From Rhodococcus tukisamuensis NBRC 100609 (GTDB taxonomy: Bacteria > Actinomycetota > Actinomycetes > Mycobacteriales > Mycobacteriaceae), in NCBI RefSeq assembly GCF_001894985.1, contig NZ_BCXG01000004.1:186001-250000 (forward strand): a DNA stretch of 64,000 nucleotides, read 5' to 3'. Both the position numbers and the translations under genes were made by a program. The notes under the pieces are model-generated. The model was not told the DNA's origin and ran no database searches. It was given only the letters and a program-made list of their open reading frames with translations. Positions 21,712 to 26,613 of this stretch are shown here, one piece after another. Position 1 is the stretch's first letter. Each line of letters begins with the position of its first letter.

Positions 21712-21733
21712 CTGGTCCCTACACTTCGTGGCG

Positions 21734-22372
21734 ATGAACGAGGACCCGATGCTGCTCGACGCGGCAGTGCACCCCGACCCCCCGCATCCGCCCGCGCCCC
21801 GGCATCACAAGGCGCCGATGCTGATCGCGGCGTTCGCCGTGGGCCTGCTCGCGGCGGCCGGGATCGTCGCGGCAGCCATGATCTGGATGCCCGCCCCGGA
21901 GCGGGCCACCGTCGCGGTTTCCCCGGTCGTCGCCGCACCGCCGAGCACCGTCTACATCACGGTGCCCGCGGCTCCCCTGCCGCCGGCACCTCCGGCCGAG
22001 CCCCCGGCGCCGGCCGTCGACGCACAGCCCGCCCCGGCCCTCGCGGCACCCACGGTGGACGGCACCGACGCGCAGGGCTTCCTCGGGTCCGCGGCCGCCA
22101 GTTGCCGGTCCGGCCATCCCGCGGTGGCCGTGGTGCGGACCGAGAAGTCGCGCGCGGTGATCTGCGAGGCCGACGACGGTGGTCGCTACTACCGGGCGCT
22201 GCGACTGCGCGACGGCGCCCCGCTCGAGGTGGGCGGCGCGGCGGCCGCCGGCGACGGCTTCGTCGCGCGCACCGGCAGCTACGCCTACTTCGTGTCCCCG
22301 AACGGGCTGACCGTCAGCCGCTGGGGGAACGCCCTCTCGCAGGAGCCCGCGATCGAGTACTGGTCACGCTGA
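21734..22372 (+). CDS. Membrane-anchored Pro/Ala-rich protein, unknown function
   Basis: 212 aa (ATG 21734; GTG 21728 is possible). A short cytoplasmic Pro/His-rich segment is followed by one hydrophobic helix (MLIAAFAVGLLAAAGIVAAA, about residues 29-48), a long Pro/Ala linker to about residue 105, and a compact C-terminal part (FLGSAAASCRSGHPAVAVVR, then EADDGGRYYRALRLRDG and YFVSPNGLTVSRWG) that may be a small extracytoplasmic domain. Two cysteines are present, near 118 and 140. It starts 22 bases after pmmB. I recognise no family. Confidence 0.75.
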   Translation: MNEDPMLLDAAVHPDPPHPPAPRHHKAPMLIAAFAVGLLAAAGIVAAAMIWMPAPERATVAVSPVVAAPPSTVYITVPAAPLPPAPPAEPPAPAVDAQPAPALAAPTVDGTDAQGFLGSAAASCRSGHPAVAVVRTEKSRAVICEADDGGRYYRALRLRDGAPLEVGGAAAAGDGFVARTGSYAYFVSPNGLTVSRWGNALSQEPAIEYWSR

Positions 22373-22385
22373 GCGGTGAAGGACC

Positions 22386-23015
22386 TCAGATCCAACGGGG
22401 GCCGAACTGCCGGTCCCCGGCATCGCCGAGCCCGGGGACGATGAACGCGTCCTCGTTCAGGCCCTCGTCGACGGCGGCGGCGACCAACCGGACCGGGAAC
22501 CCCGAGTTCTCCAGCGCCGCAACACCCTGCGGGGCGGTGACCACGCAGACCGCGGTGATGTCGGTGGCTCCGCGGGCAACGAGCAGTTCGATGGTGTGCA
22601 CCATGGAACCACCGGTGGCCAGCATCGGGTCCAGGACGTAGACCGGGATACCGGACAGGTCGTCCGGCAGCGACTCGAGGTACGGCACCGGCTCGTGGGT
22701 CTGCTCGTCGCGGGCCATGCCGACGAACCCGACCTGCGACTGCGGGATCAGCGAACTGGCCTGCTCGACCATGCCGAGTCCGGCGCGGAGCACCGGCACC
22801 AGCAGCGGCGGCTTGGCCAACCGCACCCCGCGGGTCGTCGCCACCGGGGTCTGCACGTCGAAGTCCTCGATCTCGGCGTCCCGGATGGCCTCGTAGATGA
22901 GCATCTGGGTGAGCTGACGCAGCGCGGACCGGAAGGTGGGGTTGTCGCTGCGGGCGTCACGCATCGTGGTCAACAGCGCGGCCGCCAGCGGATGATCGAC
23001 GAGTTGCGTCTCCAT
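22386..23015 (-). CDS. upp: Uracil phosphoribosyltransferase
   Basis: Makes UMP from uracil and PRPP. The PRPP loop [17 protein letters not shown] lies near residue 128 and the uracil-binding end [27 protein letters not shown] is visible in outline (key part [13 protein letters not shown] near 192-204). [20 protein letters not shown] near 77 is characteristic. Length 209 aa is standard. It faces the Pro/Ala-rich gene convergently and is divergent from the EspC-like operon. It belongs functionally with deoD, add, deoA and cdd. Confidence 0.96.
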
Positions 23016-23108: not shown

Positions 23109-23432
23109 ATGAACGAGTTTTCGGCGACGACGGACGGCATCCGCGGCTTCGGCGCCGCGGCGGGAGCGATGGCCACACGGGTGCAGGGCGCAGCGGTGGG
23201 GGCCGCGGCGGCCGGACCGGCCCTGCTCGGTCCGGCATTCGGCCTGATCGGCGCCGACTTCGTGGCGGCCTTCGCGGCCGCGCAGGGCGGACACGTGCGC
23301 GCGCTCGGCGCGCTGGCCGGGGTCCTCGACGGCATGGGCGGCGCCGCATCGGCCACCGCCGATGCGTACGACGCAGCCGACCAGGGCGTCGCGGCCGCGC
23401 TGCGCGCCACCGGCGCCGGGCTGGAGGCCTGA
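23109..23432 (+). CDS. EspC-like small helical protein, probable type VII secretion substrate
   Basis: 107-residue Ala/Gly-rich two-helix protein without a signal peptide. The second half (GADFVAAFAAAQGGHVRALG onward) follows the pattern of EspC-type ESX substrates, and TADAYDAADQGVAAAL near residue 85 contains YxxxD, the general type VII secretion signal. The first half has a helix plus a Gly/Ala turn. It is the first gene of a four-gene operon, two bases before the NlpC/P60 gene, with a GGGGGGAACC purine-rich stretch upstream of the ATG. No ESX core gene (EccC etc.) is present in the window. Family assignment by pattern; moderate confidence. Confidence 0.7.
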   Translation: MNEFSATTDGIRGFGAAAGAMATRVQGAAVGAAAAGPALLGPAFGLIGADFVAAFAAAQGGHVRALGALAGVLDGMGGAASATADAYDAADQGVAAALRATGAGLEA

Positions 23433-23434
23433 GC

Positions 23435-24649
23435 ATGCTCGGCGTCGACGTCCTGGCCCGGCCCCTGCTCGAACTGCTCGAGACCTTCGGCACCGGGGTG
23501 ATGCCGCCCGACGGCCCGGCGGACGCGCTGCGGGTCGCCTCGGTGGCGCTCGACGCCGCCTACGCCGTCGCCAGTCGTGGCCTCGCCGAACTCGGCGGCG
23601 TGTGGTCGGGCGCCGCCGCGGAGGCCGCGGCGGCGAAGGCCGAGCAGACGCAGGTGCAGCAGGTGCAGCTCTCGGACCGCGGCCAGGAGATCGCCACGGT
23701 CCTCACCGCGGCGTCGCAGGACGTGAACACCGGTGTCGCCGAACTCGAGGCCGTGGTGCAGTCGTTCGTGTCGGTGACGACGGCCGCCGGTCCGGCGCTC
23801 GCCACGCCCGCCGGCCAGGTGATGATCATCGCGGCCGCGCTCGACCACCTCTCCCGCGGCCTCGCCGTGGTCGCGCGTGTGCGGGCGGAACTGACCGCAC
23901 ACACCGGGGCGATGACCGCGCTGACCACCCCCGAGCCGGGCGTGGACCCGGCCGATCCCGGCGCCGTCACGGCCGCGGTCCGGCCGTCCGGCGCCGGCCC
24001 CACGGTGGACACCGCCGGCCTGCAGCAGCGCGGTGACGCGTTCAGCGGCTTCGGGCGCAGCTTCGCGAACGCGGCCGCCGCCCCCGGTGACGCCTACCCG
24101 GGATTCGCCGGCGGCGCCCCGATGCCCGCGAGGTCCGGTGGCCGGGTCGCCGGTCCGGGGCGCCCGGGTGCGACCGGTTCGGGTTACGGCGGCCCAGGTT
24201 TCGGCGGCTCCGATTTCAGCAGCTCTGGCAGCGGGTCCGCGGGCAGCAGCGGCGGCAGCGTCGAGGTGTTCCTGCCGGACGGCACCACGGCGATGGCCCC
24301 GAACCAGCAGGCCGCCGACGCCGTGCGCAACGCGCTGAGCCAGCAGGGGGTGCCGTACGTGTGGGGCGGCACCACCCCGGGGCAGGGTCTGGACTGCTCC
24401 GGCCTGACCCAGTGGGCATACGGCGAGGCCGGGGTGCAACTGCCCCGGCTCGCGCAGGAACAGGACATCGGGATCGCGGTCGACCAGTCCGAGCTGATGC
24501 CCGGTGACCTCGCCGTGTGGGACGGGCACGTGGCGATGGTGATCGGCGGCGGTCAGATGGTCGAGGCAGGAGACCCGGTGCAGGTCAGTTCCGTGCGTAC
24601 CGAGAACATCGGCATGGGCTTCCACGGCTTCTACCGGCCCACGACGTGA
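23435..24649 (+). CDS. NlpC/P60 (C40) peptidoglycan hydrolase with helical N-terminal domain, no signal peptide
   Basis: 404 aa from ATG 23435. Residues 1-170 are helical and Ala-rich, resembling WXG/ESX cargo domains, with GLAELGGVWSGAAAEAAAAK near 51 where VWSG may act as a WxG turn. A Gly/Ser/Pro-rich linker spans about 200-275. The C-terminus is an NlpC/P60 domain: VPYVWGGTTPGQGLDCSGL (Cys321 nucleophile) and DGHVAMVIGGGQMVEAG (His365). Such enzymes cleave stem peptides. With no Sec signal and an EspC-like gene directly upstream, export by a type VII system is inferred. Its stop overlaps the next gene by GTGA. Confidence 0.85.
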   Translation: MLGVDVLARPLLELLETFGTGVMPPDGPADALRVASVALDAAYAVASRGLAELGGVWSGAAAEAAAAKAEQTQVQQVQLSDRGQEIATVLTAASQDVNTGVAELEAVVQSFVSVTTAAGPALATPAGQVMIIAAALDHLSRGLAVVARVRAELTAHTGAMTALTTPEPGVDPADPGAVTAAVRPSGAGPTVDTAGLQQRGDAFSGFGRSFANAAAAPGDAYPGFAGGAPMPARSGGRVAGPGRPGATGSGYGGPGFGGSDFSSSGSGSAGSSGGSVEVFLPDGTTAMAPNQQAADAVRNALSQQGVPYVWGGTTPGQGLDCSGLTQWAYGEAGVQLPRLAQEQDIGIAVDQSELMPGDLAVWDGHVAMVIGGGQMVEAGDPVQVSSVRTENIGMGFHGFYRPTT

Positions 24650-25035
24650 GCGCCGACCAGTCGCCGGTCGCTCCGCAGCCTCCGGTCGCTCCGCAGGCTC
24701 CGCTCCTGCGGTCCGACGTCGCGACGGCGACGGCGCACAACCCGGCCGGCACCGTCACGGTGCGCTGCAGCGACCGCGGCCTGCCGCTGGAGGTACGCCT
24801 CGACCCCCGCGAACTACGGTACGGCGGCGGCCACCTCGCCGCGACCATCCTCGAGGTCGGCCGCCTCGCCACCGCCGAGGCGAGGGCCCGGCGGCGTATC
24901 GAACTCGCCGACGCCGGCGTGCCCCCCGACGTCCTCGACGCCCTCGGCCTGCCCACCCGCGCCGCACTGGCCGAGGCCGAGCGCACCGCGGACGCCGACC
25001 GGCCCGCCCCGACCAGTTGGCTGCGGCCGTTGTGA
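24646..25035 (+). CDS. YbaB/EbfC-like small protein
   Basis: 129 aa from GTG 24646, overlapping the NlpC/P60 stop. A Pro-rich leader of about 25 residues precedes TVTVRCSDRGLPLEVRLDP, a beta pattern typical of YbaB, then helices (GGGHLAATILEVGRLATAEA onward). YbaB-fold proteins include the EspD type that supports ESX substrates in mycobacteria. Next to secretion-type cargo, a chaperone-like role is more plausible than nucleoid binding, but that is inference. The C-terminal part (TRAALAEAERTADADRPAP) looks flexible. Confidence 0.65.
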   Translation: MSADQSPVAPQPPVAPQAPLLRSDVATATAHNPAGTVTVRCSDRGLPLEVRLDPRELRYGGGHLAATILEVGRLATAEARARRRIELADAGVPPDVLDALGLPTRAALAEAERTADADRPAPTSWLRPL

Positions 25036-25334
25036 GCGGGGTCGAGATGGACCGGGTCGTGTCCGCTGCCGCCACCCGGCTCGAATCACTGGAGACGGCG
25101 CTGCACCTGCTGGGCGGCCTGCGGGCCCGGGTCACCCACGGCTCCGGCGTGGTGAGCGTCGAGGTGGACGAGAACGGCGGCATGACGGGGCTGTGGATCT
25201 CCGAGTCCCTCGACCGAGTCGACGCCACTGACCTGGGCCGGGCCGTCACGGAGACCGCTGCCAGCGCCGCGGATGTGGTCTCCACGCAACGAGATCGGAT
25301 CCTGGCATCGCTTCACGACGTGTTCACCTACTAG
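25032..25334 (+). CDS. YbaB/EbfC-family small protein
   Basis: 100 aa from GTG 25032, overlapping the upstream stop (GTGA); ATG 25047 (MDRVVSAA) is an alternative. The YbaB pattern is clear: an N-terminal helix, then GSGVVSVEVDENGGMTGLWI as the paired strands, then a C-terminal helix (LGRAVTETAASAADVV). It is the last gene of the four-gene cassette, ten bases before the Rv3311-like gene. Two YbaB-like proteins in series suggest a heterodimeric partner for the two secreted-type proteins. Confidence 0.7.
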   Translation: MSGVEMDRVVSAAATRLESLETALHLLGGLRARVTHGSGVVSVEVDENGGMTGLWISESLDRVDATDLGRAVTETAASAADVVSTQRDRILASLHDVFTY

Positions 25335-25344
25335 GCTTCCCGCC

Positions 25345-26613
25345 ATGGCAGGAGACATCGTCCCGATCCAGCTCGGTCTGACCGACGGAGACCTCGTTAC
25401 TCTGTGGGCTCCGCGCTGGCGGGAGGGCGACGACGAGTGGGAAGCGTTCCTCGGTCACGAGGAGAACCTCTACGCGTTCGAGTCGGCCGCCGAACTCGCC
25501 GCGTTCGTCCGCGGCAACTCGGAGCACGACCTGGTCGAGCATCCGTCGTGGGCGACGGTCGTCGCGCTCTCCGCCGCCGAACTCGAGCCGGACGAGGCGA
25601 ACGTCTACGACCTGATCGGGGCGCCGGAACTGGCGGCCGAGGATCCGGACCCGGACGTCCTGACCAAGCTCGCGGAGACCCTCGAGATGGCCCAGAGCCT
25701 CGGGGACGTCTGCGACCTCGACGTCGTCACCCGGTTCTTCAGCTCGCACCCCCTCCTCGGTGCGCTGCCGGGCGCGCCCGGCACGTTCGAGGACCGTGAG
25801 GGCGAGCAGCTGTGGGCGAAGGTCGGCGCCGCCCTGGCCGACGGCTGGGACGACGTGCTGGACGCGATCGACGCCGTGGTCGCCACGCCGGCGGTCGACG
25901 CAGCCGCGGTCGCGGAGGCCGAGGCAGAGATCCTGGCCGCCGAGGAGAACACCGTCGACGCCGACGACGCGGCGGGCGACGACGAGTCCGACGAGGACCT
26001 CGAGTTCATGACGCTCGACCTCGACGACGACACCACGGATCCGATTGCCCTTGCGGCGGCAGAGGAAACGTTCTGGACTTCGGTCGGCATCGACCCGATC
26101 AAGATCATCACCGCCGCGGAGACCTACTACACCCTGCGCTGCTATCTCGGCGACGAGCCGGTCTTCCTCGGCCGGGCCGGGCGGATCCAGGTGTTCACCT
26201 CGGAGCGCGCACTGGCCCGGTACCTCGCCGACAACCACGACCACGACCTCGCGAGGGTGAGCACCTACTCGGACGTGCAGGCCGCGGCCGTCGACGGCGC
26301 ACTCGAGGTCGAGGTGACCGACGAGAACATCTACGTGCTCCCCGGCCTGGTCGACGACCTGGCCGCGGGTCCGCAGGCCGTGGACGTCGACCAGCTCGAC
26401 CTGGCGGTCGAGTTGTTCACCGACGCCGCGGAGTACGCGAAGGACCCGAGCACCGAGGCTGCGCTCGCCGCCTCCACCCCGTTGGGCTGGTACGTCTCGT
26501 ACACCCTCAACCCGGACCCCACCCGGCTGGCGCCGTCCGCGCCGTACCACGCGGAGTCCGAGGCCTGGCGCGCCCTCGAGCGCGAGTTCGAGGCCCGGCT
26601 GCGCACCGACTGA
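25345..26613 (+). CDS. Conserved acidic protein of unknown function (Rv3311-like)
   Basis: 422 aa from ATG 25345 (MAGDIVPIQLGLTDGDLVTL). Very acidic overall. Two similar halves are visible: WEAFLGHEENLYAFESAAEL with FVRGNSEHDLVEHPSW near 35-70, and YLGDEPVFLGRAGRIQVFTS with YLADNHDHDLARVSTYSDV near 265-310, suggesting an internal duplication. They are joined by an Asp/Glu-rich segment (about 195-230). The position between upp and add matches Rv3311. No catalytic motif, signal or membrane helix is seen. Function unknown. Confidence 0.85.
   Translation: MAGDIVPIQLGLTDGDLVTLWAPRWREGDDEWEAFLGHEENLYAFESAAELAAFVRGNSEHDLVEHPSWATVVALSAAELEPDEANVYDLIGAPELAAEDPDPDVLTKLAETLEMAQSLGDVCDLDVVTRFFSSHPLLGALPGAPGTFEDREGEQLWAKVGAALADGWDDVLDAIDAVVATPAVDAAAVAEAEAEILAAEENTVDADDAAGDDESDEDLEFMTLDLDDDTTDPIALAAAEETFWTSVGIDPIKIITAAETYYTLRCYLGDEPVFLGRAGRIQVFTSERALARYLADNHDHDLARVSTYSDVQAAAVDGALEVEVTDENIYVLPGLVDDLAAGPQAVDVDQLDLAVELFTDAAEYAKDPSTEAALAASTPLGWYVSYTLNPDPTRLAPSAPYHAESEAWRALEREFEARLRTD

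What the first reader, a model, noticed from the sequence alone, without database searches (positions are those of the whole stretch)
23109..25334. Orphan type VII secretion cargo cassette with a peptidoglycan hydrolase
Four coupled genes encode an EspC-like protein with YxxxD, an NlpC/P60 enzyme without a Sec signal but with a WXG-like helical front, and two YbaB-like proteins (EspD is YbaB-like in mycobacteria). No ESX machinery is nearby. This suggests a dedicated wall-cutting effector exported by a distant ESX system, with two small chaperones. It is inserted between upp and the Rv3311-like gene.
Basis: partly seen in the sequence, partly recalled or inferred. Interest (0 to 1): 0.62.

Follow-up and report, generated by a model that had tools for sequence, protein, structure and literature searches.

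The report
ESX-linked wall hydrolase operon with SatS
A bacterium of the Rhodococcus group carries an old, widely shared set of genes that looks like a cell-wall-cutting enzyme packaged for export by the type VII (ESX) secretion machine with its own helper proteins, and the set sits next to a gene like that of SatS, an export chaperone known from the tuberculosis bacterium.

Summary
The four genes are real and tightly packed: A (EspC family), B (NlpC/P60 enzyme, helical W-S-G front, no evident Sec signal), C and D (YbaB-like). The cargo idea gains support; "orphan" and "inserted" do not. The set recurs between upp and a SatS-like gene in many genera; in 112 of 120 comparable genomes the best B-like hit starts within 6 kb of SatS. 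The "Rv3311-like" gene, 10 bases downstream, is SatS-like, an export chaperone gene. ESX evidence: in 4 genomes of two genera the set sits directly downstream of eccC, and a paralogous C-D-A-B' module without NlpC lies in an ESX locus of another genus. This genome has one EccC, in an ESX-4-like locus on another contig. SecA2, the known partner of SatS, was not found here nor in 83 of 201 family genomes; 80 of those 83 carry B's front domain. Against ESX dependence: one relative without EccB and EccC keeps an intact set. Best reading: an ESX (probably ESX-4) wall-hydrolase cargo pair with YbaB-type chaperones, possibly also a SatS client. Export was not shown.

The parts
22386..23015 (-). upp, conserved left neighbour (context only)
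   Evidence: tblastn to relatives; name from the finding, no family search run
23109..23432 (+). A: EspC-family small protein, 107 aa, YxxxD (Y87-D91)
   Evidence: Pfam PF10824 5.7e-8; 27 of 30 aligned homologues hit PF10824; Y or F then D or E in 27 of 30
23435..24649 (+). B: NlpC/P60 hydrolase, 404 aa; helical front about 1-165 with W57-S-G59, low-confidence linker about 175-272, NlpC/P60 305-391 (C321, H365, E377)
24646..25035 (+). C: YbaB-like small protein, 129 aa, GTG start, overlaps B by 4 bases
   Evidence: profile match to D 95.7%; AlphaFold model near YbaB structures; Pfam alone not significant
25032..25334 (+). D: YbaB-like small protein, 100 aa, GTG start, overlaps C by 4 bases
   Evidence: 27 of 28 aligned homologues hit PF02575; profile hits Rv3716c 1.8e-9 and E. 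coli YbaB 6.1e-7
25345..26613 (+). SatS-like export chaperone (the 'Rv3311-like' gene), 422 aa, 10 bases after D, pI 4.05
   Evidence: NCBIfam NF050072 2.2e-153, 511 bits, below its cut-off of 700; pI

Best explanation
A and B are a type VII (ESX) substrate pair. Inferred steps: A (EspC-like, with the YxxxD signal) pairs with the helical front of B (with the WxG turn); the YbaB-like proteins C and D hold the pair soluble in the cytosol, as proposed for EspD and EspH; the SatS-like protein encoded next in line may act on the same cargo; the pair is recognised by EccC of the single ESX-4-like system of this genome and exported, and B then cuts peptide stems of the cell's own peptidoglycan, as NlpC/P60 enzymes of the Rip type do (recalled). 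Shown here: gene identities, conserved order, conserved catalytic residues, linkage of the set and of its paralogue to ESX loci. Not shown: binding, export, activity, or that ESX-4 is the exporter. Self wall remodelling is judged likelier than attack on rivals because the NlpC-bearing gene sits at a conserved site; immunity genes were not looked for systematically.
For: A is over the EspC cut-off and is the only EspC match of the genome. A lies directly upstream of B in 40 of 40 loci, all chosen for a full-length B; gap -4 to +8 bases in 39 of 40. In 32 aligned B proteins W57, C321, H365 and E377 are in all 32. In G025, G077, G013 and G060 the set follows an EccC ORF (cut by the fetched stretch in G013) by roughly 140-235 bases; in G060 EccE, EccB, mycosin and EccD precede it and a WXG100 gene follows. 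A paralogous C-D-A-B' module at G048:C26 lies with two WXG100-like genes (both under that model's cut-off), EccE, EccB, EccA and EccD. This genome: one EccC over cut-off, in a locus with EccD, EccB, EccE, an Rv3446c-type protein and WXG100. YbaB-like proteins as ESX-1 chaperones: PMC6107294 (passages), PMC6319747 (passages). SatS as chaperone: PMC6333443 (abstract, passages, sections 6, 14, 17).
Against: G105: no EccB, EccC only at a level like FtsK, the ESX region of sister G117 replaced by about 30 kb, yet A, B, C, D and SatS are intact with YEATD, WSG and the catalytic motifs. Three of 30 A proteins (genus g30) lack the Y, and C and D were not found in the g30 loci read nor in L062. B fails the WXG100 cut-off and no PPE Pfam match appeared. 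The PPE-like fold match (Z 11.5) is tied with sorting-nexin/BAR rows (Z 11.2). In this genome the set and ESX lie on different contigs. EspG, a known PE/PPE chaperone, is present elsewhere in the genome, so C and D need not be the only chaperones. SatS is kept in many genomes without the B front, so it is not tied to this cargo alone.
Confidence: 0.6

Rival explanations
1. B is exported by a SatS/SecA route, not by ESX: SatS binds B in the cytosol and hands it to SecA1 or, where present, SecA2.
For: A SatS-like gene is next to the set; SatS promotes export of SecA2 substrates in mycobacteria (PMC6333443, sections 6, 14, 17 and passages). G105 keeps the set without EccB/EccC.
Against: B shows no evident Sec signal (inspection and hydropathy; no signal-peptide predictor was run). 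SecA2 was not found in this genome nor in 83 of 201 family genomes, 80 of which carry the B front domain. It does not explain the EspC-like A, the YbaB pair or the EccC linkage.
Confidence: 0.15
2. The set is an ESX-delivered weapon against other bacteria rather than a tool for the own wall.
For: Wall hydrolases are common interbacterial effectors (recalled); the front domain is shared with B' proteins that carry other tails.
Against: The NlpC-bearing gene sits at a conserved site in most loci read; in the 11 B' loci read no NlpC part of the B profile matched, one of them cut by a contig end. Weak: immunity genes were not searched for and Pfam was not run on B'.
Confidence: 0.1
3. C and D are YbaB-type DNA-binding proteins regulating the operon, not chaperones; A-B may still be ESX cargo.
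For: Pfam names the family DNA-binding; the best solved match of D is the nucleoid-associated protein Rv3716c. C has pI 6.09, unlike the acidic export chaperones described in PMC6333443 (section 17).
Against: [quoted passage not shown]
Confidence: 0.15
4. B stays in the cytosol and recycles imported muropeptides; neighbours are coincidental.
For: No evident signal; nucleoside salvage genes flank it (upp from the finding; add and deoA are my labels by recall, used).
Against: Helical front with invariant W and EspC-like partner conserved; linkage to EccC in two genera.
Confidence: 0.05

Closest known systems
espA-espC-espD and espE-espF-espH of mycobacterial ESX-1 (PMC6319747 and PMC6107294, passages)
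   Same: An EspC-family partner, a larger partner, and YbaB-like stabilisers; bipartite WxG plus YxxxD/E signal
   Different: Here the larger partner carries an NlpC/P60 enzyme, there are two YbaB-like genes, the likely exporter is ESX-4-like, and a SatS-like gene follows
PE/PPE substrate pairs
   Same: Helical front of B superposes on PPE41 (2g38_B Z 11.5, rmsd 3.3, 156 residues)
   Different: No PPE Pfam match at E up to 1; the fold score is tied with sorting-nexin/BAR rows
sapM-satS operon of M. tuberculosis (PMC6333443, sections 6, 14, 17, abstract and passages)
   Same: satS is the downstream neighbour of an exported enzyme gene; a SapM-like gene (by inspection only) lies at the same upp-satS site in L090, genus g29
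   Different: SapM has a signal sequence and uses SecA2; here the enzyme has an ESX-type partner and SecA2 was not found
RipA/B/C/D NlpC/P60 enzymes
   Same: NlpC/P60 domain and fold, Cys-His-Glu (triad of RipA recalled)
   Different: Scores far below the cut-offs of RipA, RipB, RipC and RipD models; RipA and RipB have signal peptides (PMC12067865, passages)

Membership tests
EspC (PF10824), protein A | Profile match over the curated cut-off | tested here: met
   33.6 bits, cut-off 23.5; 27 of 30 aligned homologues match at E up to 0.001
EspC / ESX substrate, protein A | YxxxD/E after the helical hairpin | tested here: met
   YDAAD in the window; Y with D/E in 25 of 30, F with D in 2, neither in 3, all of genus g30
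NlpC/P60, protein B | Profile match and catalytic residues | tested here: met
   69.3 bits, cut-off 23; C321, H365, E377 in 32 of 32
WXG100, protein B | Pfam cut-off | tested here: not met
   19.6 bits against 27.3; W57 in 32 of 32, G59 in 29 of 32
PPE, protein B front | Pfam PPE match | tested here: not met
   Not among families at E up to 1
PPE, protein B front | PPE fold | tested here: inconclusive
   PPE41 Z 11.5 against sorting-nexin/BAR rows near 11.2
YbaB, protein D | Profile match | tested here: met
   27 of 28 members at E up to 0.001; PDB profile 1.8e-9; the window protein alone is 22.5 bits, under its cut-off of 25.5
YbaB, protein C | Profile match or fold | tested here: inconclusive
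   1 of 25 members match Pfam, no YbaB chain by PDB profile; C-D profile 95.7%; model Z 9.1 to 1ybx, rmsd 3.0, 72 residues, with other YbaB-type chains and mitoribosomal proteins among the first rows
SatS (NF050072) | Curated cut-off of the mycobacterial model | tested here: not met
   511 bits against 700, profile positions 1-426 of 427; 14 of 201 family genomes pass it; filed here as SatS-like
SatS | Chaperone of exported proteins | not testable with these tools
   No experiment
ESX substrate | Export depends on an ESX machine | not testable with these tools
   Only linkage; one relative without EccB/EccC keeps the set
ESX-4 locus of this genome | EccB, EccC, EccD, Rv3446c-type gene, WXG100 together | tested here: met
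   Contig C16; EccE also present; mycosin and EccA not identified among the 12 ORFs scanned

The most novel reading that the evidence does not exclude
SatS did not begin as a SecA2 chaperone: its older, widely kept partner is an ESX-4 cargo pair (EspC-like A plus NlpC/P60 enzyme B). SapM in some mycobacteria came later into the same upp-satS site. SatS would then be a chaperone shared between the ESX and Sec export routes, and a wall hydrolase would be a core cargo of ESX-4.
Probability: 0.3. Interest if true: 0.78.

Novelty: new variant of a known kind. Interest (0 to 1): 0.6.

Why it matters
ESX-4 is described as the ancestral ESX gene cluster (PMC4791881, abstract passage), and a 2025 study of M. 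[quoted passage not shown] A conserved wall hydrolase with its own EspC-like partner would give ESX-4 a testable housekeeping job. The set also offers a partner for SatS in genomes where SecA2 was not found. Deletions in a harmless Rhodococcus could test both points.

Tried and rejected
Rejected: 'recent insertion', because the order recurs in many genera. Rejected: 'the YbaB pair stands in for a missing EspG', because an EspG-family match is found in this genome. Not pursued: B as a WXG100 protein (below cut-off). Fold search with B's model was not decisive for the front: PPE and BAR-type rows tie. A gave no useful solved-structure match. Literature: SatS/SapM/SecA2, NlpC with T7SS, EspC or YbaB, ESX-4 with NlpC and hydrolase, ESX-4 with genera, T7SS-NlpC-WXG100-peptidoglycan, Rv3311/SatS/SecA2, ESX-4 with EsxU/EsxT, YbaB with T7SS and chaperone, SatS with NlpC (0 papers), R. 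equi/ESX/NlpC/secretome: none of the listed titles and abstract starts that I saw describes this operon; only open-licence papers are held. A test of att repeats at five islands gave a 16-base repeat in one (maximum 12 in 30 shuffles of that pair) and 8 to 12 bases in the others. A control comparing N-termini of the other NlpC proteins of this genome (six besides B) yielded only 2 of 6, so it carries no weight.

Limits of the counts. The 40 loci (window plus 39, 14 genus codes) were picked for a full-length B, so A-B adjacency is counted among B carriers only. The 120 genomes are those named in both truncated hit lists; distance is start to start of the listed hits. In some searches seven weak B-front matches (E 2.5e-4 to 7e-16) were counted as absent. 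The SecA2 count treats three genomes 0.5 to 7.1 bits under the cut-off as having SecA2; four of the 83 genomes without it are under 90% complete. Presence patterns are confounded by descent; no tree was built. The 80 named loci were used for names only, not read for neighbours.

Full report
1. What is there. The four + strand genes exist as described: A 23109-23432, B 23435-24649, C 24646-25035, D 25032-25334. B starts after a gap of 2 bases behind A; C overlaps B, and D overlaps C, by 4 bases. The next gene, 25345-26613, starts after a gap of 10 bases. A matches the Pfam EspC family (5.7e-8, over cut-off), B matches NlpC/P60 (3.3e-19) and, under cut-off, WXG100 (0.0012) over residues 47-97; D and C match YbaB only weakly (0.00013 and 0.051). 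The downstream 'Rv3311-like' gene matches the NCBIfam model of SatS over nearly its whole length (2.2e-153, 511 bits, cut-off 700).

2. Families. In an alignment of 30 A proteins, Y with D or E four residues on is kept in 25, F with D in 2, and neither in 3, all from genus g30; 27 of 30 match EspC on their own. In 32 B proteins W57, C321, H365 and E377 are invariant and G59 is kept in 29. D homologues match YbaB in 27 of 28 cases and their profile hits solved YbaB proteins (Rv3716c 1.8e-9, E. coli YbaB 6.1e-7). C homologues match in 1 of 25 and give no YbaB chain by PDB profile, but the C and D profiles align at 95.7%, and the AlphaFold model of C (pLDDT 87.9) has YbaB-type structures and mitoribosomal proteins as its nearest matches. 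The model of B (mean pLDDT 77.7, pTM 0.44) shows a long helical front with the W-S-G between two helices, a low-confidence linker, and the NlpC/P60 fold. The front superposes on PPE41 (Z 11.5, rmsd 3.3, 156 residues), but sorting-nexin/BAR rows score about 11.2, so this alone decides nothing.

3. Conservation. Some B match was found in 201 of 201 family genomes, but many are other NlpC enzymes. I read the window plus 39 loci with a full-length B (14 genus codes): A lies directly upstream in 40 of 40; YbaB-like genes were found in 32 (three of these with a single one); SatS in 33. The common frame is upp(-) A B C D SatS add(-). A second set of 19 loci, most of them around partial B hits, gave A with B in 16; one (L088) held only the tail end of B beside SatS, one (L090) a SapM-like gene (by inspection) instead, one (L098) was an ESX region fetched for comparison. 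In the genomes named in both truncated lists, the best listed B-like hit starts within 6 kb of SatS in 112 of 120; of the other eight, three have B at an ESX locus, four have 15-60 kb between B and SatS, and one has B near a contig end (L106). So the site is ancestral rather than a recent insertion. Searching with the B front only, 176 of 201 family genomes match, seven of them weakly. In 200 genomes drawn from the order, 41 match: 20 of the family and 21 outside it, the best of the latter at 8.1e-7.

4. Link to ESX. This genome has one EccC over cut-off, on contig C16, with EccD, EccB, EccE, an Rv3446c-type protein and a WXG100 gene. I take that as ESX-4-like; a published survey reports ESX-4 orthologues in Rhodococcus and gives each of three Rhodococcus genomes a single mark in its table (PMC4791881, passages; column heads not seen). 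In G025 (genus g25) and in G077, G013 and G060 (genus g14) the set sits directly downstream of EccC. In G060 the run is EccE, EccB, an unassigned ORF, mycosin, EccD, EccC, A, B, C, D, WXG100. A paralogous module in the order C-D-A-B', where B' has the B front but no match to the NlpC part, occurs in several genomes (sequences). In G048 it lies in a locus with two WXG100-like genes (under cut-off), EccE, EccB, EccA and EccD; in G022 the gene order looks the same by inspection, with EccC further on the same contig.

5. SatS and SecA2. In M. tuberculosis SatS stabilises SapM and promotes its SecA2-dependent export, is cytosolic and acidic, and its authors could not exclude SecA2-independent clients (PMC6333443: abstract, passages, sections 6, 14, 17). 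Here the SatS-like protein has pI 4.05. A SatS match occurs in 200 of 201 family genomes. SecA2 was not found in this genome, whose only listed SecA locus scores 480 bits in its best segment against a cut-off of 725. By the same model it was absent from 83 of 201 family genomes; 80 of those 83 carry the B front, and the other three are two genomes of genus g18 and one 85% complete genome. Among the 118 with SecA2, 89 carry the B front, so 29 keep SatS without the set, or in G199 lack both. SatS is thus kept in many genomes without SecA2, nearly all of which have the B front, and also in many with SecA2 and no B front. Descent confounds this; I built no tree.

6. Evidence against ESX dependence. 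Three family genomes had EccC only at a level like FtsK and no EccB: G034, G105, G199 (EccB was sought in 8 genomes). G199 lacks SatS and the B front (88% complete). In G034 the sequence of B diverges after its catalytic Glu and other genes lie between B and SatS. In G105, however, A, B, C, D and SatS are intact, while about 14 kb holding ESX in the sister G117 is replaced by about 30 kb. This is either a recent loss or a sign that B does not need ESX.

7. Reading. The published model for ESX-1 is a heterodimer with WxG on one partner and YxxxD/E on the other (PMC6319747, passages), with YbaB-like EspD and EspH proposed as dedicated chaperones (PMC6107294, passages). The set fits this plan with an NlpC/P60 enzyme as the payload. 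I take it as ESX cargo at 0.6, and as an additional SatS client with less confidence. Export, complex formation and activity are untested.

8. Novelty. The parts are known kinds. The combination (an NlpC/P60 payload on an EspC-paired module with YbaB-like partners, next to SatS, widely conserved in the family) did not appear in the listings of ten paper searches, in a library of open-licence papers only.

Noticed in passing
L066/L109/L110 (G081), L047/L105 (G056), L107/L108 (G164), L111/L112 (G136), L055/L113 (G034), L088 (G130): Extra DNA, phage-like in part by inspection, sits at or near the 3' end of B in six relatives. A recombinase gene follows B in G081 (family search below cut-offs) and one lies beside the leftover end of B in G136 (by inspection). 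G081 shows a 16-base repeat at both ends. B may be an integration hot spot.
   Followed up: partly
L140-L146, L148-L150, L152: B' genes sharing B's front without the NlpC part, with A upstream in 10 of 11 and C and D in 8 of 11; many end in low-complexity sequence and a similar tail. It looks like a delivery front with exchangeable payloads.
   Followed up: partly
G105:C12 about 27-58 kb against G117:C1 about 27-41 kb: The ESX region of a close relative replaced by about 30 kb of other DNA.
   Followed up: partly
L090 5050-5979; L115; L091; L089: In genus g29 (Mycobacterium-like) the space before satS varies: a SapM-like phosphatase, small membrane-type proteins, or GTPase-like genes (names by inspection only).
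   Followed up: partly
L048 3928-5163: A MinD-like ATPase (9e-11, below cut-off) lies beside the set at the ESX locus of G025; it may be EspI-like (recalled).
   Followed up: no
L233 (NZ_JNYV01000003.1): A record titled Kitasatospora arboriphila carries a B relative scoring like those of Williamsia; the record may be mislabelled.
   Followed up: no
window 21728-22372: A 214 aa + strand ORF beyond upp with no Pfam match at E up to 1 and only chance-level NCBIfam matches, kept beside upp in some relatives at 32-39% identity.
   Followed up: no
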